From Oscillospiraceae bacterium (lineage in GTDB: Bacteria; Bacillota; Clostridia; Oscillospirales; Oscillospiraceae): DNA of 61,070 nt. Position 1 is the stretch's first letter. Each line of letters begins with the position of its first letter. The translations under genes and the position numbers were made by a program. Location of the stretch: contig JAFTHT010000003.1 in assembly GCA_017457285.1 (NCBI GenBank), positions 1-61,070 of the forward strand. The letters run 5' to 3'. The notes under the pieces were generated by a model. That model saw nothing but the letters and a program-made list of their open reading frames with translations, was not told the origin of the DNA and made no database searches. Below are positions 44,474 through 61,070 of this stretch, piece by piece.

Positions 44474-44693
44474 TGTCATTGCGAGGAGCGAAGCGACGTG
44501 GCAATCTCCCGGTAGAATGTCAGAAAAGTTACTATTTAGGTGGATGCCACCGGATTAATAAGCATTTTACATCCTTCCGGATTTCTGTATTCATGAGATT
44601 GTACCAGGAGATTGCCACGGCCCTTCGGGCCTCGCAATGACATCCTTATTTATGAAAGCGGATTGCCACGGGCCTTGCGGCCCTCATAATGAC
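44474..44693. repeat. Family A palindromic repeat, long form plus an extra half
   Basis: Ends TGTCATTGCGAGG (44474) and GCAATGACA (to 44642) enclose about 140 bases. The inner part is, in reverse complement, similar to the inner part of the copy at 59039-59205. An additional right half (GATTGCCACGGG to ATAATGACG) follows to 44693. It fills the gap between the sugar transferase and aminotransferase genes. Confidence 0.8.
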
Positions 44694-45938: not shown

Positions 45939-46168
45939 CGTAGGGGCCGATGCCCACATCGGAGCGCAGATTGTGGATAAAATTGTACATGATTGTTTAG
46001 CGCCCAAGCCTTCCCCCTGGGGGGAAGGTGCCCCGAAGGGGCGGATGAGGGGTCTGCAGTCGGATGATCTACGCATTTCAGGTAATCGTAGTGCAGACCC
46101 CTCATCAGTCACAAAAATGGTTCCGAAGAACCATTTTTTGTGCCAGCTTCCCCCCAGGGGGAAGCCTT
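45939..46168. repeat. Palindromic repeats between the divergent capsule and purine promoters
   Basis: A half copy of the family C repeat (TAGGGGCCGATGCCCACATC, 45941-45960) is followed by a large nested palindrome (46006-46168). Its outer arms are AAGCCTTCCCCCTGGGG and the complementary end. Inner arms contain GATGAGGGGTCTGC and GCAGACCCCTCATC, and there is a small hairpin around TGGTTC/GAACCA. No gene is visible in 45830-46518 apart from the regulatory elements listed. Confidence 0.75.
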
Positions 46169-46348
46169 ATTGCGTCCCTTCGGGGCGCTCGGTAGCCGGA
46201 GACCGCCGCAATTCAATTACACCGCTAAACAATCCTTTTCCCCGTCATCCCCTTTTGGGGCGGAGGTATTTACGCCGCAGCCTGATTGTATTGTCAACAT
46301 CCACATGGAATCGTTTCAAAATGGCTCAGAAACTGTCTTTTCACCGAA

Positions 46349-46377
46349 TTGACGAACGAATCGACTTATGTTATAAT
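46349..46377 (+). promoter_or_regulatory. Purine operon promoter
   Basis: TTGACG (46349-46354), 17 bases, perfect TATAAT (46372-46377). Transcription would start near 46384, just upstream of the ZTP aptamer, which fits a leader RNA controlled by attenuation. Confidence 0.9.
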
Positions 46378-46394
46378 GAATCCGTATTCAATAG

Positions 46395-46465
46395 CGCCCC
46401 TGTTACTGACGGTTTTGAGTGGAGCACCACACGGAGCAGAGGCGTATAAAGCCGACCGTCTGGGC
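46395..46465 (+). ncRNA. ZTP/ZMP riboswitch (pfl motif) controlling the purine operon
   Basis: P1 pairs CGCCCCTGT (46395-46403) with GCAGAGGCG (46436-46444), one mismatch. P2 is GTGG-AGCA-CCAC (46419-46430). GACGG (46408-46412) pairs perfectly with CCGTC (46456-46460) as the pseudoknot, covarying from the usual GGCGG/CCGCC. The conserved CTGGGCA follows at 46460-46466. This is the layout of the ZTP aptamer, which senses ZMP/ZTP when 10-formyl-THF runs low. The GGGCA end overlaps the terminator stem, so ligand binding should allow read-through into purE. Confidence 0.92.
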
Positions 46466-46499
46466 ACACGCACCTTGACCGGTTGGCGTGTGCCTTTTT
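46463..46499 (+). terminator. Attenuator terminator of the ZTP riboswitch
   Basis: GGCACACGC (46463-46471) and GCGTGTGCC (46486-46494) form a perfect 9-bp stem with a 14-base loop, followed by five Ts. The 5' arm shares bases with the aptamer's GGGCA, the standard switch arrangement. Confidence 0.92.
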
Positions 46500-46518
46500 A
46501 CATTTTGGAGGTTTTTAC

Positions 46519-47001
46519 ATGAAAAAAGTCGCCATCATCATGGGTTCCGATTCCGACCTGCCCGTGGTCCGCAAGGCCGCGGATACCCTGGTCAGCTTCG
46601 GCGTGCCCTATGAAATGCACATCTATTCCGCCCACCGGACTCCGGTGGAGGCCCGTGATTTCGCCCTGAATGCCCGCAGTGCAGGCTTCGGTGCCATCAT
46701 CTGTGCCGCCGGTATGGCCGCCCATCTGGCCGGTGCCATCGCCGCCAACACCACCCTGCCCGTGATCGGCATCCCCATGAAGTCCACCACCTTCTCCAAC
46801 GGTATTGACGCCCTCCTGTCCACGGTCCAGATGCCCTCCGGTATCCCTGTCGCCACCGTGGCGGTGGATGGCGCGGTCAATGCCGCTTTGTTGTCTATCG
46901 AGATTCTGGCCGTCACCGACGATGCCCTGGCCCAAAAGCTGGACGCCAAGCGCAAGGCCGACGCCGAAAAGGTCCTCCAGAAGGACGCCGCACTGCAATA
47001 A
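46519..47001 (+). CDS. purE: PurE, N5-carboxyaminoimidazole ribonucleotide mutase
   Basis: The 160-residue protein has IIMGSDSDLPVVRKA, YSAHRTP and a GIDALLSTVQMP segment, matching class I PurE. It interconverts N5-CAIR and CAIR. No purK gene is in the window, although class I PurE normally needs PurK to make N5-CAIR. The ATG at 46519 follows GGAGG by 7 bases; a longer in-frame start would lie inside the terminator. Confidence 0.93.
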   Translation: MKKVAIIMGSDSDLPVVRKAADTLVSFGVPYEMHIYSAHRTPVEARDFALNARSAGFGAIICAAGMAAHLAGAIAANTTLPVIGIPMKSTTFSNGIDALLSTVQMPSGIPVATVAVDGAVNAALLSIEILAVTDDALAQKLDAKRKADAEKVLQKDAALQ

Positions 47002-47011
47002 GCAAAAATGC

Positions 47012-47109
47012 TGTCATTGCGAGCCAGTGCGCTTAAGTGGCGTGGCAATCCCCCAAGGTTTCCGATAGCCTCAGGAGATTGCCACGGCCCTGCGGGCCTC
47101 GCAATGACA
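47012..47109. repeat. Family A palindromic repeat between purE and purC
   Basis: A 98-base element from TGTCATTGCGAG to CTCGCAATGACA, nearly identical internally to the copy at 43702-43801. It can fold into one long stem and lies in the co-transcribed gap. Confidence 0.85.
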
Positions 47110-47154
47110 TAGAATAAACAATATACTCATTTTTTCAGAAAGAGGTAATCAACC

Positions 47155-47847
47155 ATGGAAAATCTGACTCTGCTTTACACCGGTAAGACCAAGAATGTTT
47201 ATGCCCTGCCCAACGGCAACTGCCTGCTGAAGTTCAAGGACGACTGCACCGGCAAGGACGGTGTGTTCGATCCCGGCGAGAACGCCGTGGGCCTGACCAT
47301 CGAGGGCGTGGGCGATGTGAACCTGCGGATGAGCATCTACTTCTTCGAGAAGATCAACGCCGCCGGCATCCGCACCCACTACGTCAGCGCCGACCTGGCC
47401 AACACCACCATGGAAGTCCTGCCCGCCAAGGTCTTTGGCAAGGGCCTGGAGGTCATCTGCCGCAATAAGGCCGTGGGCTCCTTCATCCGCCGCTACGGCG
47501 CCCTGATCGAGTCCGGCGCCGACCTGCCCAGCTATGTGGAGACCACCCTGAAGGACGATGCCAAGGGCGATCCCCTGATCACCAAGGACGCTCTGGTGGC
47601 CATCGGCGTCATGACCGACGAGCAGTACGAGGACCTGAAGGCCCAGACCCAGGCCATCACCAAGATCGTGGCCGACGACCTGGCCGCCAAGGGCCTGGAG
47701 CTGTACGACATCAAGTTCGAGTTCGGCTACGACCCCGACGGCAATGTCATGCTGATTGACGAGGTCGCCTCCGGCAATATGCGGGTCTACAAGGACGGCG
47801 AATACGTGGACCCCCTGACCCTGAACAAGCTGTTCTTCGCCAACTGA
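47155..47847 (+). CDS. purC: PurC, SAICAR synthetase
   Basis: The 230-residue protein has [45 protein letters not shown] and [12 protein letters not shown], the complete set of PurC signatures. It joins CAIR and aspartate with ATP to form SAICAR. Length is normal for the bacterial type. Confidence 0.96.
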
Positions 47848-47872
47848 TCCACAAATCCATAAAACGAGATGG

Positions 47873-48072
47873 ATCGATAGATACGGGATATAAGATACGA
47901 GATACGAGATATTCCTTGTCGTGACCGTATCTCATATCCGTTACGAGATATGCCTGGTGGCGAAAGTGCCATCAGGATACGAGATGATGCGGATCTTCGC
48001 GATATCCCGTATCTCATATCTCGTATCTCGTATCTCACTCTGCATCTCATATCTTCTGCATCCCGTATCTAT
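47873..48072. repeat. Family D GATACGAGATA repeat array between purC and purF
   Basis: Repeated units of GATACGAGATA and their reverse complements (TATCTCGTATC) lie in both orientations. They would fold into large hairpins. A related array lies between purD and purL. No open frame is supported here. Confidence 0.75.
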
Positions 48073-48089
48073 AGCAAGGAGGTCACTAA

Positions 48090-49511
48090 ATGGGTGGCTT
48101 TTTCGGGGCTATTACCCGCAAAGAATGTAAATATGACGTGTTTTTCGGCACGGATTATCACTCCCACCTCGGCACCCGCCGGGGCGGTATGGCGTTTTTT
48201 GACGAGCAGAAAGGCTTCCAGCGCCAGATCCACAACATCGAAAACACTCCCTTCCGCACCAAATTCGAGTCCGATATGGGCAAATTCTGCGGCCATGCCG
48301 GCATCGGCTGCATCTCCGACACCGACCCCCAGCCTCTGCTGGTCCGGTCCCACCTGGGGATGTTCGCCATCGCCACCGTGGGCCTGATTAACAACGCCGA
48401 GGAGCTGGTGGAAAAGACCTTCTCCGGCCCCGGCCATCAGTTCATGGCCATGTCCTCCGGCAAGGTCAACACCACGGAGCTGACCGCCGCCCTCATCAAC
48501 CAAAAAAGCGACATCGTCGAGGGCATCCACCATGCCCAGAACATTATCGACGGCTCCTGCACCATTCTGCTGCTGACCCCCGACGGCCTCATCGCCGCCC
48601 GGGACCGGCTGGGCCGCATCCCGGTGCTGGTGGGCCAGAGCCTGGAGGGCTGCTGCGTTTCCTTCGAGTCCTTCGCCTACCACAAGCTGGGCTACCAGGA
48701 CTACTACGAGCTGGGCCCCGGTGAGATCGTGAAGATCACCCCCGGCGGCGTGGAGCAGCTGGCCGCCCCCGGCAAGGAAATGAAGATCTGCGCCTTCCTG
48801 TGGACCTACTACGGCTACCCCAACTCCAATTACGAGGGCAAGAACGTGGAGGTCATGCGCTACCGCAACGGCGAGATCATGGCCCGGGACGAAGCCAAGG
48901 CCGGTACCCTGCCGGATGTGGACTTCGTGGCCGGTGTGCCGGATTCCGGCCTCCCCCACGCCATCGGCTACGCCAACGAGAGCCACAAGGCCTACGCCCG
49001 GCCCTTCGTGAAATACACCCCCACCTGGTCCCGTTCCTTCATCCCCTCCAATCAGGAGATGCGCAATCTCGTGGCGGAAATGAAGCAGATTCCCGTGCCG
49101 GAGCTGATTCAGGACAAGAAGCTGCTGTTCGTGGACGATTCCATCGTCCGGGGCACCCAGCTCAACGAAACCGTTCAGTTCCTCTATGAAAGCGGCGCCA
49201 AGGAAGTGCATATGCGCTCTGCCTGTCCGCCCATCATGTACAGCTGCAAATATCTGAATTTCTCCAGCAGCAAATCCGAAATGGAGCTGCTGGCCCGGAA
49301 GACCATCCAGAAGCTGGAGGGTCTGGAGGGCATGAAGCACATCGACGAATACACCGACCGCACCACCGAGCGGGGACAGTGCCTGCTGAAGACCATCTGC
49401 GAGGACATGGGCTTCGACTCCCTGGGCTACCAGAGCCTGGAGGGCCTCCTGGAGGCCATCGGCCTGGACCGGGAAAAGGTCTGCACCTACTGCTGGAACG
49501 GCAAGGAATAA
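48090..49511 (+). CDS. purF: PurF-like amidophosphoribosyltransferase lacking the N-terminal catalytic cysteine
   Basis: The 473-residue protein has the PurF two-domain order: a class II glutaminase (about 1-230) and a PRPP-binding transferase domain with LLFVDDSIVRGTQL near 349-362 and SACPPIMYSC. In active PurF the residue after Met is the nucleophilic Cys; here the start is M-G-G-F-F-G. The Arg of the GHTRY motif (here GHAGIG) and the HNG motif are also changed. It may use free ammonia, or ammonia from a partner. I recall similar GGFFG proteins from Bacteroidetes, not checked. AAGGAGG is 7 bases before the ATG. Confidence 0.88.
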   Translation: MGGFFGAITRKECKYDVFFGTDYHSHLGTRRGGMAFFDEQKGFQRQIHNIENTPFRTKFESDMGKFCGHAGIGCISDTDPQPLLVRSHLGMFAIATVGLINNAEELVEKTFSGPGHQFMAMSSGKVNTTELTAALINQKSDIVEGIHHAQNIIDGSCTILLLTPDGLIAARDRLGRIPVLVGQSLEGCCVSFESFAYHKLGYQDYYELGPGEIVKITPGGVEQLAAPGKEMKICAFLWTYYGYPNSNYEGKNVEVMRYRNGEIMARDEAKAGTLPDVDFVAGVPDSGLPHAIGYANESHKAYARPFVKYTPTWSRSFIPSNQEMRNLVAEMKQIPVPELIQDKKLLFVDDSIVRGTQLNETVQFLYESGAKEVHMRSACPPIMYSCKYLNFSSSKSEMELLARKTIQKLEGLEGMKHIDEYTDRTTERGQCLLKTICEDMGFDSLGYQSLEGLLEAIGLDREKVCTYCWNGKE

Positions 49512-49520
49512 GCCCTACGC

Positions 49521-49675
49521 CTTGCCCCCCTCATTTATGAGGGGGGTGGACGAGCGAAGCGAGGCCGGGGGGAGTCCGTGACAAAGAGAAGAGAGAAGCC
49601 TGCTTTCGTAGGGGATACCGCAACGATTCACTTAATACTGACTCCCCCCCGCCCCTCATAAATGAGGGGGGCAAG
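49521..49675. repeat. Family B palindromic repeat between purF and purM
   Basis: The ends are CTTGCCCCCCTCATTTATGA and its reverse complement (to 49675). The centre includes AGAGAAGCCTGCTTTCGTAG, also found in the copy at 53606-53852. It is a 155-base foldable element within the operon. Confidence 0.85.
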
Positions 49676-49718
49676 ATTGATACCTAATATATAAAACTTC
49701 CGAAAAGGAGCTTTCATC

Positions 49719-50771
49719 ATGGATCACAAGAACTCCCAGTCTGCCAGCTACGCGGCTGCCGGTGTGGACATTACCGCCGGTTATAAGGCTGTCGAGCTGA
49801 TGAAGAAGCACGTTGCCCGGACCCGCAACGCTGGGTGCCTGGATGACGTAGGCGGCTTCGGCGGCTGCTTCGGCCTGCCCATCGCCGGCATGGAGGAGCC
49901 CGTTCTGGTCTCCGGCACCGACGGCTGCGGCACCAAGGTCAAGCTGGCCATCCTCATGGACAAGCACGACACCATCGGCATCGATGCCGTGGCCATGTGC
50001 GTCAACGACATCATCTGCGTGGGCGCCAAGCCCCTGTTCTTCCTGGACTACATCGCCTGCGGCAAGAACATCCCCGAGAAGATCGCTGCCATCGTTTCCG
50101 GCGTGGCCGAGGGCTGCGTCCAGTCCGGCGCCGCCCTCATCGGCGGCGAGACCGCGGAGCATCCCGGTCTGATGCCTGTGGAGGACTACGACCTGGCCGG
50201 CTTCGCCGTGGGCATCGTGGACAAGAAGAAGATCATCAAGAATGAGCGCATGGCCGCCGGTGACGTGGTCATCGCCCTGGCCTCCACCGGCATCCATTCC
50301 AACGGCTTCAGCCTCTGCCGGAAGGTTTTCAACATCGACAATAATGACCCCCTGCTCTACGAAAGCCGCGAAGAGCTGGGCGGCAAGACCATCGCCGAAA
50401 CCCTGCTGACCCCCACCAAAATCTACGTCAAGAGCATCCTGGCGCTGCTGGAAAAGGTGGACGTGAAGGGCATCAGCCACATCACCGGCGGCGGCTTCTA
50501 CGAAAATATTCCCCGCTCCATCCCCGACGGCCTCTGCGCCAAAATCGACAAGTCCGCCGTGAAGGTCCTGCCCATTTTCGACCTGATTATGTCCTTCGGC
50601 AACATTCCCGAGCGGGATATGTACAATACCTATAATATGGGCGTGGGCATGAGCGTTGTGGTTCCCGCCGACCAGGTGGACACCGCGCTGGAAATCCTCA
50701 AGGCCAACGGCGAGGATGCCTACGTCATCGGTTCCATCATCGAAAACGACGAGAAGGTGATTCTGGAGTGA
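49719..50771 (+). CDS. purM: PurM, AIR synthetase
   Basis: The 350-residue protein has [44 protein letters not shown] and [13 protein letters not shown], typical PurM motifs. It closes FGAM to AIR with ATP. The 3' end overlaps purN by 4 bases. Confidence 0.96.
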
Positions 50772-51355
50772 AGCGGATCGCGGTTTTCGTTTCCGGCGGC
50801 GGCACCAACCTCCAGGCCCTGATCGATGCCCAGGGGACAGTCCTGAACAGCGGCAAAATCACCCTGGTGGTGGCCAACAACGCCGACGCTTACGCCCTGG
50901 AGCGGGCAAAAAAGGCCGGCATCGCCACGGAAGTGGTGCTGAAAAAGCAGTGCGGCTCCCAGGCGGCTTTCGAAGAGCGGCTGAAGGAGGTCCTGACTGC
51001 CCACGGCATCGATATCATCGTCCTGGCGGGCTTCATGACCATCCTGACGGAGAATTTCACCAGCTGCTACCCCAAGCGAATCCTGAATGTCCACCCCAGC
51101 CTGATCCCTTCCTTCTGCGGCGAGGGCTTCTACGGCCTGCGGGTCCATCAGGCGGCGCTGGATTACGGCGTGAAGGTCACCGGCGCCACGGTGCATTTCG
51201 TCAACGAAATCCCCGATGGCGGCGAGATCATCGCCCAGAAGGCCGTCTACATCGAAGACGGCGACACCCCCGAAACGCTGCAGCGCCGGGTCATGGAACA
51301 GGCGGAATGGATTCTGCTCCCCGAAGCTGCCGAAAAGGTCTGTAAGGAACTTTAG
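50768..51355 (+). CDS. purN: PurN, GAR transformylase
   Basis: The 195-residue protein has [47 protein letters not shown] and [14 protein letters not shown], matching PurN. It uses 10-formyl-THF, so limited folate would raise ZMP and fit the riboswitch. GTG start in a 4-base overlap with purM. Confidence 0.95.
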
Positions 51356-51364
51356 AAACCACCC

Positions 51365-51443
51365 CGTAGGGGCCGATGCCCACATCGGCCCTCGCCGCAG
51401 GCGCAATGCGGAACCCGGGCCGATGTGGGCATCGGCCCCTACG
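51365..51443. repeat. Family C palindromic repeat between purN and purO
   Basis: CGTAGGGGCCGATGCCCACA and its complement at the far end enclose a short centre (79 bases in all). The same arms occur at 45939-45962 and within 53696-53768. Confidence 0.85.
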
Positions 51444-51473
51444 GCATGACAGCATGAATTGGAGGATATACCA

Positions 51474-52187
51474 ATGAACGTCTACGAAACCAAAACCATG
51501 GCCGCCTGGCTGGACGGCAACACCTACCCCGGCCGGGGCATCGTCCTGGGCGTGGCCCCTGATGGCAAGAAGGCCGTGGCGGCTTACTTCATCATGGGCC
51601 GGTCCGTCAACTCCCGGAACCGGGTGTTCTGCCTGGAGCCCGACGGCATCCGTACCGAGGCCCACGACCCCGCCCTGATGAAGGATCCTCACCTGATTAT
51701 CTACCATCCTGTCCGTGAGCTGGGCGATGGCCTGATCGTCACCAACGGCGACCAGACCGATACCATCTGGCAGTTCGCCGCCCGTGGCGAGAGCTGGGAG
51801 GCCGCTCTGCGGACCCGCCAGTTCGAGGACGACGGCCCCAACTGGACCCCCCGGATTTCCGGCATCCAGGCCGGCGACGGCTCCTACAAAATGTCCATCC
51901 TGAAGGCCGCCGACCCCGAGGGCAACGCCTGCGCCCGGTTCTTCTGGGAGTACCCCGCCACCGCGGGCCTGGGCCACTTCCTGCACACCTACGTCTGCGA
52001 CGGCAACCCCGTGATTCCCACCTTCCAGGGCGAGCCCGAGCGGGTGGAGATTCCCGGCGATATCGACGCCTTCACCAAGGAGCTGTGGGAGAATCTGGAC
52101 GAAAACAACAAGATTTCCCTCTTCGTCCGCTACACCGACCTCGCCACCGGCGAAAAGGAACAGCGGATCATCAATAAGCACTGCTAA
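51474..52187 (+). CDS. purO: PurO-type IMP cyclohydrolase
   Basis: The 237-residue protein matches the PurO/PF07826 family, first known in archaea: MAAWLDGNTYPGRGIVLG, AYFIMGRSVNSRNRVF and LIIYHPVRELGDGLIVTNGD. It closes FAICAR to IMP. In most bacteria this is the N-terminal half of PurH; here it is replaced by a stand-alone enzyme next to a transformylase-only gene. The ATG at 51474 is 8 bases from GGAGG. Confidence 0.9.
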   Translation: MNVYETKTMAAWLDGNTYPGRGIVLGVAPDGKKAVAAYFIMGRSVNSRNRVFCLEPDGIRTEAHDPALMKDPHLIIYHPVRELGDGLIVTNGDQTDTIWQFAARGESWEAALRTRQFEDDGPNWTPRISGIQAGDGSYKMSILKAADPEGNACARFFWEYPATAGLGHFLHTYVCDGNPVIPTFQGEPERVEIPGDIDAFTKELWENLDENNKISLFVRYTDLATGEKEQRIINKHC

Positions 52188-52198
52188 TCGCACGCCTC

Positions 52199-52322
52199 CT
52201 TGCCCCCCTCATTTATGAGGGAGGTGGACGAGCGAAGCGAGGCCGGGGGGAGTCTGCCCCCGGTATACTCCCCCCGCCCCGGGCTACGCCGGGGCACCCC
52301 CCTCATAAATGAGGGGGGCGAG
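52199..52322. repeat. Family B palindromic repeat between purO and purH
   Basis: Arms CTTGCCCCCCTCATTTATGA and the complement at the right end (52300-52322) with GGGGGAGTC and ACTCCCCCC next in. A 124-base copy of the element at 49521-49675. Confidence 0.85.
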
Positions 52323-52352
52323 CGTATCTACTATTATTTGGAGGTTATCAAA

Positions 52353-53537
52353 ATGACTGAATTTCAGCTGAAATATGGCTGCAACCCCAACCAGAAGCCT
52401 GCTTCCCTGTACATGAAGGACGGCTCCGAGCTGCCCTTCGAGATTCTCAACGGCCGCCCCGGCTACATCAACTTTATGGACGCCCTGAACTCCTGGCAGC
52501 TGGTCAAGGAGCTGAAGGAAGCCACCGGCATGGCCTGCGCCACCTCCTTCAAGCACGTTTCCCCCACCTGTGCCGCCGTGGGCAAGCCCCTGCCGGCGGA
52601 CCTGAAGAAGGCCTGCTTCGTGGAGGACATCGAGGGTCTGGACGAGAATCCCCTGGCCTGCGCCTATGCCCGTGCCCGTGGCGCGGACCGGCTCTGCTCC
52701 TTCGGCGACTGGGTGGCCCTGTCCGACGAGTGCGATGCCATGACCGCTTCCATGATCGCCAAGGAAGTTTCCGACGGTGTCATCGCCCCCGGCTACACCG
52801 ATGAAGCTCTGGCCATCCTGAAAACCAAGCGGGGCGGCAATTACAATGTGGTTGCCATCGACCCCAATTACGTTCCCGAAACCCAGGAAACCAAGCAGAT
52901 TTTCGGCATCACCTTCGAGCAGGGCCGCAACAACTTCAAGATCGGCGAGCATCTGCTGGAGAACATGGTCACCGCCAACAAGGAGCTGCCCGAAAGCGCC
53001 AAGATTGACCTGATTATCTCCCTGATTACCCTGAAGTACACCCAGTCCAACTCCGTCTGCTTTGCCTACGACGGCCAGGCCATCGGTGTCGGCGCCGGTC
53101 AGCAGTCCCGAGTCCACTGCGTGCGCCTCGCCGGCGGCAAGGCCGACACCTGGTTCCTGCGGCAGCATCCCAAGACCCTGGCTCTGCCCTTCCGGGAGGA
53201 CCTGGGCCGCCCCGGCCGTGATAACGTCATCGACGGCTACATCAACGGCAACGAAGAGGATGTCTGCGCCGAGGGCATCTGGCAGAACTACTTCACCGTC
53301 CGTCCCGAGCCCCTGACCGCCGAAGAGAAGCGGGCCTGGCTGGATTCCCGGGATGCGGTTGCCCTGGGCTCCGATGCCTTCTTCCCCTTCCCCGACTCCG
53401 TCAAGCGTGGCGTGGCCTCCGGCGTCAAGTACATCGCCCAGCCCGGCGGCTCCATCCGCGACGACCTGGTCATCGCCGAGTGCGACAAAAACGGCATCGC
53501 CATGGCCTTCACCGGCATGCGGCTGTTCCACCACTAA
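52353..53537 (+). CDS. purH: AICAR transformylase, stand-alone (PurH C-terminal domain homologue)
   Basis: The 394-residue protein has KYGCNPNQKPASLYM, TSFKHVSPTCAAVGKP and KYTQSNSVCFAYDG plus IGVGAGQQSRVHCVR, the transformylase half of PurH. It lacks the cyclohydrolase half, which is supplied by purO just upstream. It makes FAICAR from AICAR and 10-formyl-THF, the step most sensitive to folate supply. GGAGG lies 8 bases before the ATG at 52353. Confidence 0.93.
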   Translation: MTEFQLKYGCNPNQKPASLYMKDGSELPFEILNGRPGYINFMDALNSWQLVKELKEATGMACATSFKHVSPTCAAVGKPLPADLKKACFVEDIEGLDENPLACAYARARGADRLCSFGDWVALSDECDAMTASMIAKEVSDGVIAPGYTDEALAILKTKRGGNYNVVAIDPNYVPETQETKQIFGITFEQGRNNFKIGEHLLENMVTANKELPESAKIDLIISLITLKYTQSNSVCFAYDGQAIGVGAGQQSRVHCVRLAGGKADTWFLRQHPKTLALPFREDLGRPGRDNVIDGYINGNEEDVCAEGIWQNYFTVRPEPLTAEEKRAWLDSRDAVALGSDAFFPFPDSVKRGVASGVKYIAQPGGSIRDDLVIAECDKNGIAMAFTGMRLFHH

Positions 53538-53605
53538 TTTCAACGCCATAGGGGACGGTTCTGCCGCCCCCTATCGGTGCGTTTTCCAGACACGCCGCTT
53601 GCTGC

Positions 53606-53852
53606 CTTGCCCCCCTCGTTTACGAGGGGGGTGGCCGAGCGAAGCGAAGGTCGGGGGGAGTCCGTAACAAAGAGAAGAGAGAAGCCTGCTTTCGTAGGGA
53701 CCGATACCCACATCGGCCCTGCGGGATTACCGATGGGTAAAAAGGGCCGATGTGGGCATCGGCCCCTACAACTATTCATTATTCATTCTTCACTTACCAC
53801 AGACTCCCCCCGCCCCTTCGGGGCACCCCCCCTCATAAATGAGGGGGGCAAG
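53606..53852. repeat. Family B repeat with an inserted family C repeat between purH and purD
   Basis: Outer family B arms (CTTGCCCCCCTCGTTTACGA at 53606 and the complement to 53852) enclose a complete family C-like element (about 53696-53768, arms AGGGACCGATACCCACATCG and the complement). So one repeat was inserted into another. There is no supported gene in 53538-53883. Confidence 0.8.
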
Positions 53853-53883
53853 AATAACCCTTACTGACTTTTGGAGGTAACCT

Positions 53884-55149
<1,266 letters not shown>

Positions 55150-55165
55150 TAACGCAGATATGGAG

Positions 55166-55280
55166 TGGAAGATACGAGATACGGGATATGAGATACGAGA
55201 TAATGCGTATTTTATATCATCCCCGAAGGGGATCCCTTCTATCTCGTATCTCGTATCTCATATCTCATATCTCATATCTA
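55166..55280. repeat. Family D GATACGAGATA repeat between purD and purL
   Basis: Units of GATACGAGATACGGGATA on the left face TATCTCGTATCTCG units on the right, around a small CCCCGAAGGGG hairpin. It forms one large inverted repeat just before purL. Confidence 0.8.
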
Positions 55281-55303
55281 AAAATAAACTGGAGGAACCC
55301 CCC

Positions 55304-58300
55304 ATGGTTTATCGCATTTATGTTGAGAAAAAAGAGGGCCTGGAGAATGAGGCCAGAGGCCTGCTCAGCGAGGCCAAAAACCTGCTGGGCATCACCAATC
55401 TGGAAGGCCTGCGGCTGTTCAACCGCTATGACGCGGAGAATATCTCCGAGGAGCTCTTCGACTACGCCGTCAAGACCGTTTTCTCCGAGCCCCAGCTGGA
55501 CTACGCCGCAGCAGAAGTGGATCTGCCCGGCGCCTATGTCTTTGCCGTGGAGGCCCTGCCCGGTCAGTTTGACCAGCGGGCCGATTCCGCCGCCCAGTGC
55601 ATCCAGATCATCTCCCAGGGCGACCGGCCCCTGATCCGCACCGCCAAGGTCTACGCCCTCTACGGCCAGCTCACCGAAAAGGACATCGCCGATTTCAAGA
55701 AGTACGTCATCAACCCCGTGGAATGCCGGGAGGCCGCCCTGGAGCTGCCCGAAACCCTGGCCATTCAGTACGACATCCCCACTGAGGTTGCCACCCTCGA
55801 CGGCTTTACCAAGCTGGATCAGAAGGGCCTGGCCGACTTCATCAAGCAGTACGGCCTGGCCATGGATCTGGACGACATCACCTTCTGCCAGAGCTACTTC
55901 GTTTCCGAGGACCGGGACCCCACCATCACCGAAATCCGGATGATCGACACCTACTGGTCCGACCACTGCCGCCACACCACCTTCGGCACCATCATCGACG
56001 ATGTGAAATTCGAGGATGCGCTGCTGCAGTCTACTTATCATGAGTACATCGCCACCCGGAACGCTCTGGGCCGGGAGAACAAGCCCATCTGCCTGATGGA
56101 CCTGGCCACCATCGCCGTGCGGCACCTGAAGGCCAACGGTCAGCTCCCCAAGCTGGACGAATCCGAAGAGATCAACGCCTGCACTGTCAAGATCGATGTG
56201 ACCGTGGATGGCGTCACCGAGCCCTGGCTGCTGCTGTTCAAGAACGAAACCCACAACCATCCCACCGAAATCGAGCCCTTCGGCGGCGCGGCCACCTGCA
56301 TCGGCGGTGCCATCCGTGACCCCCTGTCCGGCCGTTCTTACGTTTACGGCGCCATGCGTGTCACCGGTGCCGCAGACCCCCTGAAGAGCGTTTCCGAAAC
56401 CATCCCCGGCAAGCTGCCCCAGCGGAAGATCGTCACCACCGCCGCCGCAGGCTACTCCAGCTACGGCAACCAGATCGGTCTGGCCACCGGCATCGTGGAC
56501 GAAATCTACCACCCGGGCTACGCCGCCAAGCGGATGGAGATCGGCGCGGTCATCGCCGCGGCGCCCGCCGAAAATGTCCGCCGGGAGCGGCCCGAGGCCG
56601 GCGACATCGTGATTCTGCTGGGCGGCAACACCGGCCGTGACGGCATCGGCGGCGCCACCGGCTCCTCCAAGGCCCACAATACCCAGTCCGTGGAAACCTG
56701 CGGCTCCGAGGTCCAGAAGGGCAACGCCCCCGAGGAGCGGAAATTGCAGCGGCTGTTCCGGAACGCCGAAGCCTCCCGGCTCATCAAGCGGTGCAATGAC
56801 TTCGGCGCCGGCGGCGTATCCGTTGCCATCGGCGAGCTGGCCGACGGCCTGACCATCGACCTGAACGCCGTGCCCAAGAAGTACGAGGGTCTGGACGGCA
56901 CCGAAATCGCCATTTCCGAATCCCAGGAACGGATGGCCGTAGTGGTGGAGGCCAAGGACGTCAAGCGCTTCCTGGAGCTGGCCCTGACCGAAAACCTGAA
57001 CGCCGTCCCCGTGGCCACCGTCACCGAAGAGGCCCGGCTGGTCATGCACTGGAACGGCAAGAAAATCTGCGACATCAGCCGCGACTTCCTGAACTCCAAC
57101 GGCGCGGACAAGCATATCACCTGCGCTCCCGCCGCCCCCACCGGCTATCAGAAGACCATTTCCGGCACCTTCGCCGAGAATTTCAAGGCCGTGGCCACCG
57201 ACCTGAACACCTGCTCCAAGCGGGGCCTGAGCGAGCGGTTCGACTCCACCATCGGCGCCGGCACCGTGCTGATGCCCTTCGGCGGCAAGAACCAGCTGAC
57301 CCCCATCCAGGCCATGGTCCAGAAGATCAGCGTCGAAAAGAAGCACACCGACGACTGCTCCTTCATGGCCTTCGGCTACAACCCCTTCATCACCTCCGCT
57401 TCCCCCTACCACGGCGCCTACCTGGCGGTCATCGAGTCCGTTTCCAAGCTCATCGCCACCGGTGCCGACTTTAAGGACGTTTATCTGACCTTCCAGGAGT
57501 ATTTCGAGCGGCTGAACAAGGACCCCAAGCGTTGGGGCAAGCCCCTGGCGGCACTGCTGGGCGCCTTCAAGGCCCAGATGAACCTGGGCATCGGCTCCAT
57601 CGGCGGCAAGGACTCCATGTCCGGCTCCTTCGAGAATCTGGATGTGCCCCCCACCCTGGTTTCCTTCGCCGTCACCACCGGCAAGACCAGTGATGTAATC
57701 AGCCCCGAATTTAAGGCCGCCGGCCACACCGTGTGCCTGCTGAAGCCCCAGCTGGATGAAAACGGTCTGCCCGTCACCGAATCCCTGCTGAAGAATTTCA
57801 ACACCGTCACCGAGCTGCTGCGCAGCGGCAAGGCCGTGGCCGCCTACACCCCCGGCATGGGCGGCGTGGCAGAGGCCCTGATGAAGATGGGCTTCGGCAA
57901 CGGCTTCGGCATCGCCATCGACGAAAACGTGACCATGGAGGAGCTCTTCGGCTACAACTACGGCGCCTTCGTGCTGGAAATGGCCGAAGGGACTGTGGGC
58001 CAGGTCCTGGGCACCACCACCGCCGGCGACTTCTCCTACCGGGGCGAAACCCTGGACCAGGGCGGCATCCTGAAGGCCTACGAGGACAAGCTGGAGTCCG
58101 TCTACTCCTGCAACATCCCCGCCCCCGCGGGCAAGATGGAGACCTTCTCCTTCGAGGCCGGCGCCCGGGTGGCTCCCGCCATCAAGGTGGCCAAGCCCAA
58201 GGTGCTGATCCCCGCCTTCCCCGGCACCAACTGCGAGTACGATTCCGCCAAGGCCGTCCGGGATGCAGGCGCCGAGCCGGAGATCATCGTCATCAACAAC

Positions 58301-58990
58301 CTCAGTGCTGACGGCATCGCCCGGAGCGTTGAACATTTCGCCCAGGAGCTGAAGAGCGCCCAGTGCGTGTTCATCCCCGGCGGCTTCTCCGGCGGCGACG
58401 AGCCCGACGGCTCCGGCAAGTTCATCACCGCCTTCTTCCGCAACGCTGCGGTGAAGGAGGGCGTCACCGACCTGCTGGAGAACCGGGACGGCCTGATGCT
58501 GGGCATCTGCAACGGCTTCCAGGCGCTGATCAAGCTGGGCCTGGTGCCCTACGGCAAGATCATCGACACCGATGAGAACTGCCCCACCCTGACCTTCAAC
58601 AACATTTCCCGGCACCAGAGCCGGATCGTCCGGACCCGTGTGGCCTCCAACAAGAGCCCCTGGCTGGCCCTGACCAACGTGGGCGACGTGTACAATGTGC
58701 CCATCTCCCACGGCGAGGGAAAATTCCTGGCCAGCGAGGAATTGATCGCCCAGCTGGCGGCAAACGGCCAGATCGCCACCCAGTATGTGGACCTCAGCGG
58801 TAACGCCACCGCCGACATCCACTTCAACCCCAACGGCTCCCTCTACGCCATCGAGGGCATCACCAGCCCCGACGGAAGAGTCCTGGGCAAAATGGGCCAC
58901 AGCGAACGGATCGGCAAGGGTCTGTACAAAAACGTCCCCGGCGAGTACGACATCCAGCTGTTCAAGGCCGCGGTGCAGTATTTTAAGTAA
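55304..58990 (+). CDS. purL: PurL, single-chain FGAM synthase
   Basis: The 1,228-residue enzyme has an N-terminal domain, two AIR-synthase-like halves (YWSDHCRHTTFG, NETHNHPTEIEPFGGAATC; later GIGSIGGKDSMSGSF) and a C-terminal class I glutaminase with GICNGFQAL (nucleophile Cys) and PISHGEGKF. It converts FGAR to FGAM using glutamine. GGAGGA precedes the ATG at 55304; a longer frame upstream is within the repeat. The last purine gene in view; no purB or purA follow. Confidence 0.96.
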   Translation: MVYRIYVEKKEGLENEARGLLSEAKNLLGITNLEGLRLFNRYDAENISEELFDYAVKTVFSEPQLDYAAAEVDLPGAYVFAVEALPGQFDQRADSAAQCIQIISQGDRPLIRTAKVYALYGQLTEKDIADFKKYVINPVECREAALELPETLAIQYDIPTEVATLDGFTKLDQKGLADFIKQYGLAMDLDDITFCQSYFVSEDRDPTITEIRMIDTYWSDHCRHTTFGTIIDDVKFEDALLQSTYHEYIATRNALGRENKPICLMDLATIAVRHLKANGQLPKLDESEEINACTVKIDVTVDGVTEPWLLLFKNETHNHPTEIEPFGGAATCIGGAIRDPLSGRSYVYGAMRVTGAADPLKSVSETIPGKLPQRKIVTTAAAGYSSYGNQIGLATGIVDEIYHPGYAAKRMEIGAVIAAAPAENVRRERPEAGDIVILLGGNTGRDGIGGATGSSKAHNTQSVETCGSEVQKGNAPEERKLQRLFRNAEASRLIKRCNDFGAGGVSVAIGELADGLTIDLNAVPKKYEGLDGTEIAISESQERMAVVVEAKDVKRFLELALTENLNAVPVATVTEEARLVMHWNGKKICDISRDFLNSNGADKHITCAPAAPTGYQKTISGTFAENFKAVATDLNTCSKRGLSERFDSTIGAGTVLMPFGGKNQLTPIQAMVQKISVEKKHTDDCSFMAFGYNPFITSASPYHGAYLAVIESVSKLIATGADFKDVYLTFQEYFERLNKDPKRWGKPLAALLGAFKAQMNLGIGSIGGKDSMSGSFENLDVPPTLVSFAVTTGKTSDVISPEFKAAGHTVCLLKPQLDENGLPVTESLLKNFNTVTELLRSGKAVAAYTPGMGGVAEALMKMGFGNGFGIAIDENVTMEELFGYNYGAFVLEMAEGTVGQVLGTTTAGDFSYRGETLDQGGILKAYEDKLESVYSCNIPAPAGKMETFSFEAGARVAPAIKVAKPKVLIPAFPGTNCEYDSAKAVRDAGAEPEIIVINNLSADGIARSVEHFAQELKSAQCVFIPGGFSGGDEPDGSGKFITAFFRNAAVKEGVTDLLENRDGLMLGICNGFQALIKLGLVPYGKIIDTDENCPTLTFNNISRHQSRIVRTRVASNKSPWLALTNVGDVYNVPISHGEGKFLASEELIAQLAANGQIATQYVDLSGNATADIHFNPNGSLYAIEGITSPDGRVLGKMGHSERIGKGLYKNVPGEYDIQLFKAAVQYFK

Positions 58991-59009
58991 GCATTCCCGG
59001 TGTGTCGAT

Positions 59010-59246
59010 AAATGATTGTTTCGCATATCAGATTAGTATGTCATTGCGAGGCCCGAAGGGCCGTGGCAATCTCCTGGTGCAATCTCACAAAAAAGAGAAC
59101 TTTGAAGGGATGCAAAATCTTATAAACCTGGTTGCAACCACCTAATATGTTGCTTTTCCGGCATTTCACCGGGAGATTGCCACGGCCTTCGGCCTCGCAA
59201 TGACATGCGTTTTTTTGAGGGTGCATCCTAAGCGAAACCATCATTT
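59010..59246. repeat. Family A repeat inside a larger inverted pair, after purL
   Basis: A family A element of about 167 bases (TGTCATTGCGAGG at 59039 to TCGCAATGACA at 59205) is flanked by AAATGATTGTTTCGC (59010-59024) and its near-complement (59232-59246). Its inner part is an inverted relative of the element at 44474-44642. It fills most of the gap before the small membrane-protein gene. Confidence 0.75.
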
Positions 59247-59287
59247 TTCCCACAAGCGGATTTTCCGCACACGATTGTGCGAAAATT

Positions 59288-59348
59288 TTGTCCAAACCCC
59301 GCAATTTCCAATATAATCCTTGCATTTTTTCGAAAGTATTGCTATAAT
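59288..59348 (+). promoter_or_regulatory. Tandem promoters of the small membrane-protein gene
   Basis: P1: TTGTCC (59288-59293), 18 bases, TATAAT (59312-59317). P2: TTGCAT (59320-59325), 17 bases, TATAAT (59343-59348). Both read towards the gene at 59381, so it is not simply part of the purine operon. Confidence 0.65.
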
Positions 59349-59380
59349 TGATTCGATTTTATACGAGGGAGGTGTCTTTC

Positions 59381-59623
59381 ATGGATATGGTCAAGAATAT
59401 TTTCCCCTTCTCCTTCAACTTCAAGGAAAAGGACACCAATGGTCTGATTGTCAGCATTATCATCTACATCGTGCTGATGCTGGTTTCCGGTATCGTCATG
59501 TGGGTGCTGGGCATGATTCCCGTAATCAACATCCTGACCGGCATCGTTGGCTGGATTATCGAAATCTACGCCGTGGCCGGTATCGTCCTGTCGGTGCTGA
59601 ACTACTTCAACGTGCTGAAGTAA
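59381..59623 (+). CDS. Small integral membrane protein
   Basis: The 80-residue protein has a soluble N-terminal part (DMVKNIFPFSFNFKEKD), then two or three hydrophobic segments (about 19-76) rich in Gly-Ile-Val. No catalytic motif is visible. GGGAGGTG is 6 bases before the ATG, and promoter and terminator make it a separate unit. Its function is unknown. Confidence 0.75.
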   Translation: MDMVKNIFPFSFNFKEKDTNGLIVSIIIYIVLMLVSGIVMWVLGMIPVINILTGIVGWIIEIYAVAGIVLSVLNYFNVLK

Positions 59624-59629
59624 AAAAGA

Positions 59630-59657
59630 CGGAGCCGGATTCCGGCTCCGCTTTTTT
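59630..59657 (+). terminator. Intrinsic terminator after the small membrane protein
   Basis: CGGAGCCGG (59630-59638) and CCGGCTCCG (59642-59650) form a 9-bp stem with a 3-base loop, followed by CTTTTTT. A-rich sequence on the other side could give some bidirectional function. Confidence 0.9.
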
Positions 59658-59721
59658 GCCCCTTCCATCTTTTTGCGATTCGTGGTATACTGGTCGCAAA
59701 AGTGGGAAGGGGGTTATTTTT

Positions 59722-60462
59722 TTGGCGAAAAAGAAGAAAAAACAGCAAAAGGGCCTGCTGCTGCGTTGTCTGATTGCCGCTGTGGCGGCGGCAGCGCTGA
59801 TTGTGGGCCTGGTGTTCCTCCTGAAGCCCCCTCCACCGTCAAAAGAGCCTCCTGTCCTCCAGGGACAGGTACCGGGCATCGATGTGTCCTCTCACCAGGG
59901 TCAAATCGATTGGGAAAAGGTTGCGGACAGCGGAATCCAATTCGCCATCGTCCGCTTAGGCTACCGCAGCTACGGCGACGGCACCCTACATACCGACCAG
60001 CGGGCAAAGGAAAATCTGGCGGGGGCCCGGGCCGCGGGGCTGAAAGTTGGGGCCTACTTCTTCTCCCAGGCCGTCACCGAGGCCGAGGCCGAAACGGAAG
60101 CGGCCCTGGCCCTGGGGATTTTGGGGGATTTTCAGCTGGATTTACCCCTGGCCTACGACTGGGAATACGTCAGCGAGGCCGCCCGGACCGGGGACTTGGA
60201 GGGGGCGCAGCTAATCAATTGCGTCCACGCCTTCTGCGAAACCGTGGAGGCCGGGGGAGAGGAGCCCATGGTCTACTTCAACCAGGATTTGGCCAACACC
60301 AGGCTGGATTTGTCGGAAATTGAAGAATACCCCTTCTGGCTTGCGCAATATGCGGAAAGTTTGGATTTCCCCGCAAAAGTCACCTTCTGGCAGCACTCCG
60401 ACCAGGGAAAAATCCAGGGAATCGAGGAAAACGTAGATTTGAACTGGTACTGGCCGGAATAA
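59722..60462 (+). CDS. Membrane-anchored GH25 muramidase
   Basis: The 246-residue protein has a Lys-rich start, one membrane anchor (about 11-34) and a GH25 domain: GIDVSSHQGQIDWEKV, FAIVRLGYRSYGDG, VGAYFFSQAV, LPLAYDWEY and WLAQYAESL. Asp and Glu in the DWE motif are the likely catalytic pair. The start is TTG at 59722 with AAGGGGG upstream; no in-frame ATG is available. It cuts peptidoglycan outside the membrane. Confidence 0.88.
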   Translation: MAKKKKKQQKGLLLRCLIAAVAAAALIVGLVFLLKPPPPSKEPPVLQGQVPGIDVSSHQGQIDWEKVADSGIQFAIVRLGYRSYGDGTLHTDQRAKENLAGARAAGLKVGAYFFSQAVTEAEAETEAALALGILGDFQLDLPLAYDWEYVSEAARTGDLEGAQLINCVHAFCETVEAGGEEPMVYFNQDLANTRLDLSEIEEYPFWLAQYAESLDFPAKVTFWQHSDQGKIQGIEENVDLNWYWPE

Positions 60463-60495
60463 ACCTTCTGTCATTGTTATGAAAGTGTCCTCTGA

Positions 60496-60530
60496 CAAAA
60501 AACAGGCACCCTAATGGGTGCCTGTTTTTT
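60496..60530. terminator. Bidirectional terminator after the GH25 gene
   Basis: CAGGCACCC (60503-60511) and GGGTGCCTG (60516-60524) with A- and T-runs on both sides. It ends the muramidase transcript on the plus strand and any leftward tRNA read-through. Confidence 0.88.
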
Positions 60531-60665
60531 CTGGGGTGGATGATGGGAGTCGTTTGCATTTTCATTCCCTGTCAGGGAATGAAAATAGAGGTGTCGCCGG
60601 GGCCCTACCCGGCGATCAACCTGCCCCCGGCAGGTTGAATTTGATTTTTCGACTTCCATCATCTG

Positions 60666-60700
60666 AAAAAAACAGGCACCCTAATGGGTGCCTGTTTTTT
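60666..60700 (-). terminator. Terminator of the tRNA-His/Arg/Gly transcript
   Basis: A second identical hairpin (60673-60681 with 60686-60694) directly follows the 3' end of the tRNA-His gene on the minus strand and is flanked by A/T runs. Confidence 0.88.
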
Positions 60701-60701
60701 A

Positions 60702-60779
60702 TGGGGTGGATGATGGGAGTCGAACCCACGACCTTCAGAGCCACAATCTGACGCGCTAACCAACTGTGCTACATCCACC
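60702..60779 (-). tRNA. tRNA-His(GUG)
   Basis: The cloverleaf is complete. The anticodon loop is TTGTGGC with anticodon GTG, and the extra G at -1 pairs with the discriminator C, as in tRNA-His. CCA is encoded. Boundaries include CCA and G-1. Confidence 0.95.
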
Positions 60780-60797
60780 ATATTCTTTTAAGCTGAA

Positions 60798-60932
60798 TGG
60801 CACGCCAGGAGGGACTCGGTTAATCAAGGAGCGGCTCGGTCAAGCCCTCGCCGGAAACAGTCCACCGGACTGTTTCATTTGATTGTTCGAGTCGATAAAA
60901 CCTGGCAAAAGTGGCACGCCAGGAGGGACTCG
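60798..60932. repeat. 21-bp direct repeat of the tRNA-Arg 3' end
   Basis: TGGCACGCCAGGAGGGACTC plus G at 60798-60818 repeats exactly at 60912-60932, the latter being the 3' end of tRNA-Arg. The 93 bases between contain AAACAGTCC/GGACTGTTT and ATTTGATTGTTCGA, similar in layout to the insert beside tRNA-His. Confidence 0.8.
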
Positions 60933-60988
60933 AACCCCCGACCTACTGCTTAGAAGGCAGTTGCTCTATCCAGCTGAGCTACTGGCGC
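60912..60988 (-). tRNA. tRNA-Arg(UCU)
   Basis: Complete cloverleaf with anticodon loop CTTCTAA (anticodon TCT, reading AGA). The acceptor stem GCGCCAG pairs with CTGGCGT, discriminator G and encoded CCA. Confidence 0.95.
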
Positions 60989-60995
60989 ATTTCTA

Positions 60996-61069
60996 TGGAG
61001 CGGGTGACGGGAATCGGACCCGCGTATCCAGCTTGGAAGGCTGGTGTTCTACCATTGAACTACACCCGC
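60996..61069 (-). tRNA. tRNA-Gly(UCC)
   Basis: Complete cloverleaf with anticodon loop CTTCCAA (anticodon TCC, reading GGA), acceptor GCGGGTG with CACCCGC, and encoded CCA. It lies at the right edge and is complete by one base. Confidence 0.95.
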
Positions 61070-61070
61070 A

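What the first reader, a model, noticed from the sequence alone, without database searches (positions are those of the whole stretch)
47002..59246. Every real gap in the purine operon holds a palindromic repeat from one of four families
Seen: purE-purC (family A), purC-purF (D), purF-purM (B), purN-purO (C), purO-purH (B), purH-purD (B with C inside), purD-purL (D) and after purL (A). The only gap without one is purM-purN, where the genes overlap. Each can fold into a long hairpin. Inference: these are mobile palindromes in safe sites, perhaps now acting in mRNA processing or segmental stability of a 12-kb transcript. The one-per-gap pattern is unusual.
Basis: seen in the sequence. Interest (0 to 1): 0.72.

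Follow-up and report, generated by a model that had tools for sequence, protein, structure and literature searches.

The report
Gene-paired mobile palindromes in purine operon
The gaps of this bacterium's purine operon are filled by four kinds of small mobile palindromes, and in relatives each kind brackets its own small gene, which gives a testable origin for several widespread but unexplained bacterial DNA repeats.

Summary
Confirmed: all 7 non-overlapping purE-C-F-M-N-O-H-D-L gaps and the gap after purL hold strong palindromes of four families; purM-purN overlaps by 4 nt. They are dispersed repeats: own-genome pattern counts are A 197 hits, B 102 places, D 99 hits, one C subtype 21 hits. 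The operon occurs without them: 14 of 42 relatives with complete gene order have none, and a gap can hold different families in different relatives. 'One per gap' is the longest filled run in a 22% genome sample, but not significant against other gaps of 100 nt or more (6/6 vs 53/80, p=0.096).

New result: each family flanks its own small gene on both sides: A a GIY-YIG nuclease lineage, B DUF559 (Vsr-like), C REP-associated tyrosine transposases (known), D four-helix-bundle/23S-IVP genes. D arms are 7-nt-period repeats whose sequence varies between elements; on plasmids of five phyla 18 of 19 four-helix genes have them on both sides, 0 of 158 control genes. Best reading: non-autonomous copies of four one-gene elements, lodged behind stop codons, probably RNase III substrates when transcribed.

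The parts
47012..47109 (.). Family A palindrome (TGTCATTGCGAG..GTGGCAATC units, inverted pair), purE-purC gap
   Evidence: 10 nt after the stop, 45 nt before the purC start
47879..48070 (.). Family D palindrome, 7-nt period (GATACGA-type) arms, no ORF, purC-purF gap
49521..49675 (.). Family B palindrome (CCCCCCTCATTTATGAGGGGGG ends), purF-purM gap
   Evidence: aligned against the short gap of L027
51364..51444 (.). Family C palindrome (GTAGGGGCCGATG.. inverted pair, REPIN-like), purN-purO gap
52199..52322 (.). Family B palindrome, purO-purH gap
53606..53852 (.). Family B palindrome, purH-purD gap, carrying a nested family C element
53694..53769 (.). Family C inverted pair nested inside the B element
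55156..55279 (.). Family D palindrome, 7-nt period arms, no ORF, purD-purL gap
59039..59205 (.). Family A palindrome after purL
53548..53585 (+). Small hairpin with CGGTGCGTTTT tail; related hairpins recur in the purH-purD gap of relatives, so probably inherited in place rather than mobile (inference)
   Evidence: 13 regex hits in all loci then held: window 1, purH-purD gaps of relatives 9, purD-purL 1, elsewhere 2
46349..46377 (+). Promoter-like site (TTGACG-17-TATAAT, TG before the second hexamer), likely start of the operon transcript
   Evidence: consensus match only
46392..46472 (+). ZMP/ZTP riboswitch (RF01750) before purE
   Evidence: 50 bits, gathering cut-off 39
46519..58990 (+). purE-C-F-M-N-O-H-D-L coding genes

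Best explanation
The palindromes are non-autonomous copies of four unrelated kinds of small one-gene mobile element. In each kind the complete element is one short gene bracketed by the same palindromic ends: A with a GIY-YIG nuclease, B with a DUF559 (Vsr-like) nuclease, C with a REP-associated tyrosine transposase, D with a four-helix-bundle protein of the 23S-rRNA-intervening-sequence family. Shown here: the gene-to-repeat pairing, dispersal, relatives with short gaps, and turnover. Inferred: the paired protein mobilises the ends in trans (for C by the known RAYT model); copies persist mainly behind stop codons and before the next Shine-Dalgarno because such sites cost least, so non-overlapping operon gaps fill up in repeat-rich genomes. 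Also inferred: once transcribed, the long stems are RNase III substrates, so the purine mRNA is probably cut at each gap as a side effect.
For: Pairing, repeat family on BOTH sides within 150 nt (order A/B/C/D): four-helix n=67: 1/0/0/15 (1/0/0/14 of 65 after two duplicate loci are dropped); DUF559 n=41: 0/23/0/0; GIY-YIG n=44: 9/0/0/0; RAYT-like n=24: 0/0/11/0; IS200-like n=12: all 0; other genes: own sample n=268: 8/4/0/1, purine loci n=1010: 5/5/4/10, neighbours n=272: 1/3/0/4. The nine A-flanked GIY genes are adjacent in the tree (Fitch 3 changes, shuffled minimum 5 in 1000); with a wider A motif, 15 mobile-type GIY leaves score 12 both and 15 any, the other 29 score 0 both and 1 any. Own genome: a GIY gene sits in A arms and a DUF559 gene in B arms with the same CCCCCCTCATTTATGAGGGGGG as purF-purM. 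D on plasmids: period 7 both sides 18/19 (threshold 0.70) or 14/19 (0.76) vs 0/158 control genes; periods 5, 6, 8, 9, 10 at 0.76: 0/19. Arms match within an element (median score 25.5) more than between elements (8.0). In the purH-purD gap of 11 relatives the heptamer type goes with the four-helix subclade rather than with the host tree. Short gaps and turnover.
Against: No movement was observed and no target duplication established. Motif definitions for one search were widened after inspecting flanks; the first version gave both-side counts D 8/29, B 12/27, A 1/28, C 1/27, so A and C depended on the wider definitions. The wider A motif was set, and its 15 leaves were picked by me from the tree. 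The DUF559 pairing follows its tree only weakly (32 of 1000 shuffles as good), RAYT better (4 of 1000). The four-helix gene was not found in the own genome (66% complete MAG), so the D parent is inferred from relatives. The exact C subtype of the purine gaps was not seen around an own-genome RAYT. 51 of 65 distinct four-helix loci lack two-sided arms by the test. In the purH-purD set, four-helix identity also correlates with host identity (Spearman 0.50, 55 pairs). In 3 of 19 plasmid elements the within-element arm score lies below the 95th percentile of between-element scores.
Confidence: 0.72

Rival explanations
1. The palindromes are kept by selection as mRNA processing or stability elements that set the ratio of the purine enzymes.
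For: 8 of 8 eligible gaps filled, longest run in the own sample; strong hairpins; fewer filled divergent gaps (6/21) than same-strand (66/118) and convergent ones (14/21), gaps of 30 nt or more; L006 also 7 of 7 filled.
Against: 14 of 42 complete relatives have no A-D motif, no inverted repeat with arms of 14 nt or more and no four-helix gene in any gap. Families differ at the same gap: at most 7 of 13 filled relatives share the window's family, 0 of 6 at purC-purF. No promoter-like + strand site in the seven intra-operon gaps.
Confidence: 0.12
2. The repeats are generic hairpin insertions and the small genes are passengers that happen to sit between two repeat copies, not their mobility partners.
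For: Many repeat copies per genome make chance bracketing possible; D period-7 arms without a gene are common; no enzymology.
Against: One-to-one table with almost empty off-diagonal cells; lineage-limited pairing for GIY; period-7 arms on both sides of 18 of 19 four-helix genes in five phyla against 0 of 158 other genes of five of the same plasmids; heptamer type goes with the gene subclade.
Confidence: 0.14
3. The palindromes are intrinsic terminators or attenuators between operon genes.
For: Long G+C-rich stems in A, B and C.
Against: In 46000-59700 there are 18 terminator-like sites against 13.2 (sd 4.2) expected; on the + strand only one weak match lies in an intra-operon gap (53751) and one after purL (59266), downstream of the A element; one minus-strand match touches the purD-purL gap (55304). 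D stems are A+T-rich. Terminators would cut off the downstream purine genes.
Confidence: 0.03

Closest known systems
REPIN/RAYT system (GTAG-tagged REPs and REP-associated tyrosine transposases)
   Same: Family C: GTAG tag, hairpin, inverted pairs, flanks RAYT-like genes. The preference for unidirectional and convergent gaps close to upstream stop codons matches Di Nocera 2013 (PMC3733652: abstract and outline; sections 15 and 16 read). PMC3116915 and PMC8266576: listing and abstract start only.
   Different: Families A, B and D show the same layout with non-RAYT partners (GIY-YIG, DUF559, four-helix bundle). In the parts read, that paper reports CGTC REPs without a transposase and TIRs around RAYTs, and none of these partners.
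23S rRNA intervening sequences (IVS) with S23/IVP open reading frame
   Same: Gene-bearing D elements: complementary ends (best arms mostly 17-37 nt), purH-purD gaps of 439-500 nt, PF05635/TIGR02436 ORF. Coxiella IVS: 428/444 nt, 28-bp stem of terminal inverted repeats, S23p ORF, RNase III excision (PMC4990558, passages).
   Different: They sit between genes rather than in 23S rRNA (no rRNA match in 20 loci), have 7-nt-period arms of varying sequence, and leave gene-less palindromes.
Heptanucleotide repeats of bacteria (cyanobacterial STRR, Xanthomonas/Nostoc, TAACTGA of Beggiatoaceae, Geobacter)
   Same: 7-nt period, species-specific unit. PMC4692102, PMC4679880 and PMC2700814 (passages); what STRR means and its history are recalled, with listing only.
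   Different: The passages seen name no partner gene; PMC4692102 says its repeats were generally not found with mobile elements. MacGregor 2015 (PMC4679880) raised an unidentified repeat-binding protein as a possible mobile element.
23S_rRNA_IVP genes in cas loci (PMC3936711, passage)
   Same: 18 such genes reported in cas loci; here two sit between cas2 and cas1, on the other strand, in Nostoc/Anabaena plasmids.
   Different: Here they are read as insertions with heptamer arms rather than as CRISPR-associated functions.
MITEs
   Same: Gene-less, inverted-repeat, dispersed copies alongside a larger gene-bearing form.
   Different: No classical DDE transposase seen and no target duplication established.

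Membership tests
REPIN/RAYT (family C) | GTAG-tagged hairpins in inverted pairs | tested here: met
   51366-51391 with 51417-51442, and 53694-53719 with 53744-53769
REPIN/RAYT (family C) | Cognate RAYT gene flanked by the repeats | tested here: met
   11 of 24 RAYT-like loci both sides, 0 of 12 IS200-like (split made by hand from the search ranking); the own-genome RAYT with C arms carries another C subtype (L101)
REPIN/RAYT (family C) | NCBIfam REP_Tyr_transpos cut-off (80 bits) | tested here: inconclusive
   L101 77.4 and L102 70.6 bits, just under
23S rRNA IVS (family D) | Complementary ends around an S23/IVP ORF | tested here: met
   11 relatives in the purH-purD gap; not for the ORF-less window copies
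23S rRNA IVS (family D) | Inserted in 23S rRNA | tested here: not met
   Window copies lie between purine genes; no rRNA match in 20 four-helix loci, only two SRP RNAs and a tRNA nearby
23S rRNA IVS (family D) | Excised by RNase III | not testable with these tools
   needs RNA
Heptanucleotide (STRR-type) repeats | 7-nt period, dispersed in the genome | tested here: met
   99 overlapping hits to GATAYRRGATAYRRGATA in the own genome, control 0; period test
MITE | Target-site duplication | tested here: inconclusive
   Filled/short alignments show size differences but gap DNA diverges too fast to fix borders
Intrinsic terminator | Stem followed by U-tract at the palindromes | tested here: not met
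   one weak + strand match in an intra-operon gap
Curated RNA family (Rfam 15) | Any match over the gathering score at the palindromes | tested here: not met
   (46000-61070): only three tRNAs and the ZTP riboswitch pass

The most novel reading that the evidence does not exclude
Bacteria carry a general class of minimal mobile elements, one small gene between palindromic ends plus swarms of gene-less copies, of which REPIN/RAYT is only one instance. The GIY-YIG, DUF559 and four-helix-bundle versions account for widespread unexplained intergenic palindromes and, for the last, for heptanucleotide repeats across phyla. The four-helix element is an IVS-like element of messenger operons whose constraint is a 7-nt period and arm-to-arm complementarity rather than a sequence, with the heptamer specified by its own protein lineage.
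Probability: 0.5. Interest if true: 0.9.

Novelty: new variant of a known kind. Interest (0 to 1): 0.77.

Why it matters
Intergenic palindromes and heptanucleotide repeats are common in bacterial genomes and mostly have no known mover. A simple gene-to-repeat pairing turns 'repeat of unknown origin' into a testable pair of protein and substrate for three more families. It suggests that 23S-rRNA IVS elements are one placement of a wider element of operon gaps, and predicts many RNase III cut points in polycistronic mRNAs of gut Oscillospiraceae and perhaps cyanobacteria. It also warns against reading such hairpins as conserved operon regulators.

Tried and rejected
Rfam annotation of the palindromes: nothing over a gathering score; the miRNA matches below cut-off look like long-hairpin artefacts. 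Terminators: rejected. First pairing test with narrower motifs and cruder gene starts gave weak A and C results; superseded after reading the flanks, both reported. A tree-label test for four-helix genes crashed on a missing row, as did the DUF559 subtype listing after it; replaced for four-helix by the period test, not repeated for DUF559 subtypes. The GATAC heptamer as a genus-wide marker was dropped: present in 11 of 41 genomes including own. A literature search on palindromes in Faecalibacterium led nowhere. Searches listed no paper that by title or abstract start links heptamers to four-helix genes, or GIY-YIG/DUF559 to such palindromes; the library is open-access only, lists are capped and most hits were not opened.

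Two four-helix loci were duplicates (L224 of L111, L227 of L115).

Rows dropped: one search dropped loci within 80 nt of a stretch end or with an ORF over 1000 nt (four-helix 67 of 70; DUF559 41 of 45 assigned out of 46 offered, L082 included; GIY 44 of 45, L082 included; Y1 36 of 40 assigned out of 42 offered). The searches themselves returned more matches than I fetched: at most 30 loci per family plus 40 four-helix, 15 DUF559, 11 Y1 and 14 GIY stretches by hand, mostly the higher-scoring ones. One search's tree left out short, stop-bearing and edge ORFs. One search used 19 of 24 plasmid records. One search used 13 of 14 loci; two of the 13 are own-genome genes already counted.
Full report
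1. The observation. The window is contig C75 of an incomplete MAG (1.46 Mb, 82 contigs, 66% complete). The nearest PurO loci are Oscillospiraceae/Clostridia MAGs, many named after goat, sheep, deer, yak or buffalo gut samples. The operon purE-C-F-M-N-O-H-D-L (46519-58990) lies behind a promoter-like site and a ZTP riboswitch. Every non-overlapping gap and the gap after purL hold a strong palindrome. Six of the eight start 6-31 nt after a stop codon (the others 48 and 68); the seven intra-operon ones end 19-45 nt before the next start and leave its Shine-Dalgarno intact.

2. Not peculiar to the operon. In a sample of the own genome (window plus 20 stretches, 317 kb; home-made gene caller), 50 of 86 same-strand gaps of 100 nt or more carry a motif of the four families and 0 of 99 under 30 nt. 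Filled gaps of 30 nt or more (motif, or inverted repeat of 16 nt or more): same-strand 66/118, convergent 14/21, divergent 6/21. Whole-genome pattern counts: A 197, B 102 places (204 hits, because the pattern is its own reverse complement), one C subtype 21 with up to 3 mismatches, D 99 overlapping hits; reversed-pattern controls 0. The purine run of 8 filled gaps is the longest in the sample, next 5. Against all same-strand junctions the operon is enriched (7/8 vs 59/209, p=0.0012; gaps of 10 nt or more 7/7 vs 59/146, p=0.0023), against gaps of 60 nt or more marginally (6/6 vs 56/95, p=0.049), against gaps of 100 nt or more not significantly (6/6 vs 53/80, p=0.096); the caller shortened one purine gap by a false start, hence 6.

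3. Relatives. The best 80 of 507 purO relatives were fetched and gaps measured. Of 42 loci with all eight junctions in order, 17 carry no A-D motif by regex; three of these still hold an inverted repeat or a four-helix element, which leaves 14 with none; 8 have every gap under 60 nt. The same gap carries different families in different relatives: purE-purC A1 C2 D3 among 50 measured; purF-purM A6 B4 C4 D8 among 68; purC-purF has the window's family in 0 of 6 filled relatives. Many long gaps (e.g. 20 of 51 at purC-purF) hold none of the four families by this test but other hairpins or nothing recognised. Filled and short gaps between the same genes align as size differences, but borders and target duplications cannot be fixed because gap DNA diverges quickly. 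L006 has 7 of 7 non-overlapping gaps filled.

4. Each family has its own gene. Reading longer gaps showed ORFs between arms. Families PF05635 (four-helix), PF04480 (DUF559), PF01541 (GIY-YIG) and PF01797 (Y1_Tnp) were searched in 60 genomes and neighbourhoods fetched. Repeat on both sides within 150 nt: four-helix 67 loci A1 B0 C0 D15 (65 distinct: D14); DUF559 41 loci B23 only; GIY-YIG 44 loci A9 only; RAYT-like 24 loci C11 only; IS200-like 12 loci none. Other genes, A/B/C/D: own 268 8/4/0/1; purine loci 1010 5/5/4/10 (this set still includes four-helix ORFs of the purH-purD gap, so it should overstate the D background); neighbours 272 1/3/0/4. A first, narrower version gave D 8/29, B 12/27, A 1/28, C 1/27; the definitions were widened after reading the flanks.

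5. Pairing follows gene lineages. The nine A-flanked GIY genes are adjacent in the tree, with a tenth flanked on one side. The neighbouring group (L177, L190, L289, L291) is flanked by a related palindrome, TCATCCTGAGC..GAAGGATCTT, on both sides in L190 and L289 and on one side by regex in L177 and L291. With one wider motif, 15 mobile-type leaves score 12 both and 15 any, the other 29 GIY genes 0 both and 1 any; relatives from 245 genomes of the class score 10/13 both and 12/13 any (8/11 and 10/11 without the two own-genome genes), against 1/16 both and 8/16 any for neighbouring genes, many of which share a gap with the element (motif set). Only 12 of the 245 genomes had a match. RAYT-C follows its tree (4 of 1000 shuffles as good), DUF559-B only weakly (32 of 1000).

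6. Family D. One four-helix clade (19 distinct loci) has period-7 arms on both sides in 16 and on at least one in 19; the other 47 loci 1 and 9 (threshold 0.70; the clade was delimited by me from the listing, which also showed the arms). The unit differs between loci (GATACAA, AATTAGG, GTGGAGA, GTTGAGA, AATGCAA and others), so period and complementarity are kept, not sequence. New set: the protein in a plasmid collection hit 24 records, mostly cyanobacteria; I fetched 19. Period 7 both sides 18/19 at 0.70 and 14/19 at 0.76, any side 19/19; 158 control genes from five of the same plasmids 0 both and 19 or 16 any; periods 5, 6, 8, 9 and 10 at 0.76: 0/19. Arm-to-arm complementarity is 25.5 (median) within elements and 8.0 between, with 3 of 19 below the 95th percentile of the latter. 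Some pairs (L308, L316, L317) look direct rather than inverted. Two of the genes lie between cas2 and cas1. None of 20 four-helix loci scanned lies in rRNA.

7. A site with recurrent D elements. In 11 relatives the purH-purD gap holds a four-helix element; the 11 proteins form one clade (support 0.94) with three subclades, one per heptamer type. The host PurH+PurD tree disagrees in places: L018 and L052 are 95% identical in host proteins but carry different heptamers and 58% identical four-helix proteins. Over all 55 pairs four-helix and host identity still correlate (Spearman 0.50), so inheritance in place also plays a part. I read this as heptamer type specified by the protein lineage, with some re-arrivals at one site; the number of independent switches is small.

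8. Mechanism. For C the known model (RAYT acts on GTAG hairpins; recalled, and Di Nocera 2013 read in part) is enough. For A and B the partners are nuclease families, so nick- or cleavage-driven copying of hairpin ends is plausible but untested. For D the partner is a four-helix bundle, pentameric by homology (PDB 2rld and 2gsc, five chains each; pentamer stated for the Xanthomonas S23p in a passage of PMC4990558), with no nuclease domain found. Gene-bearing D elements match the layout and size of the 23S IVS. That makes RNase III cutting of transcribed elements the most concrete prediction, and mRNA fragmentation a by-product rather than a proven function.

9. Literature. Papers and depth of reading are given under Closest known systems; PMC12907096 (passages) describes a Caulobacter DUF559 protein as Vsr-like, and its searched words palindrom- and transpos- do not occur. 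PMC8700078 (passages) only lists four-helix genes as strain-specific. PMC4692102 states that its heptameric repeats were generally not found with mobile elements, which is against a simple generalisation from the four-helix result to all heptamers.

Noticed in passing
L102 1480-2061 (own genome C76): A RAYT-like ORF contains GTAGGGACACCCGTCCCCGGGTGTCC-type repeat copies inside its open reading frame, so part of the protein is encoded by the repeat.
   Followed up: partly
window 53548-53585; purH-purD gap of relatives: Small hairpin with a CGGTGCGTTTT tail recurring at the same site (9 regex hits in relatives); unlike the mobile palindromes it looks vertically inherited and may be an attenuator.
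   Followed up: partly
purF-purM gap of L007, L008, L019, L020, L021, L024 (seen): Another recurrent element (GACAATNCG..CTCGATTCGTTA type), sometimes in tandem, not among the four families.
   Followed up: no
L118-L131: Other four-helix-bundle genes lack heptamer arms; several have upstream runs of small hairpins separated by short repeats such as AATTCAT or ATTTCA.
   Followed up: no
L251, L261, L256, L260, L132, L247, L252, L249: Four-helix genes, adjacent in the tree, with period-7 repeats upstream only.
   Followed up: partly
G000:C34:30141-30451: A very asymmetric heptamer palindrome in the own genome: about 30 nt of GATAYRA units in one direction and about 250 nt in the other.
   Followed up: no
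G000:C62:69052-69294: Tandem array of family A monomers with spacers of nearly constant length.
   Followed up: no
window 44474-44642, 45940-45965, 46006-46168: Further palindromes next to the operon: an A pair between two minus-strand genes, half a C element, and a CTTCCCCC-type element in the divergent gap upstream of the riboswitch.
   Followed up: partly
own-genome sample, family A monomers: 90 monomers share constant ends but have 33 different middles; 48% of the middles form a stem of 4 bp or more against 10% of shuffled ones, so complementarity is kept while sequence varies.
   Followed up: partly
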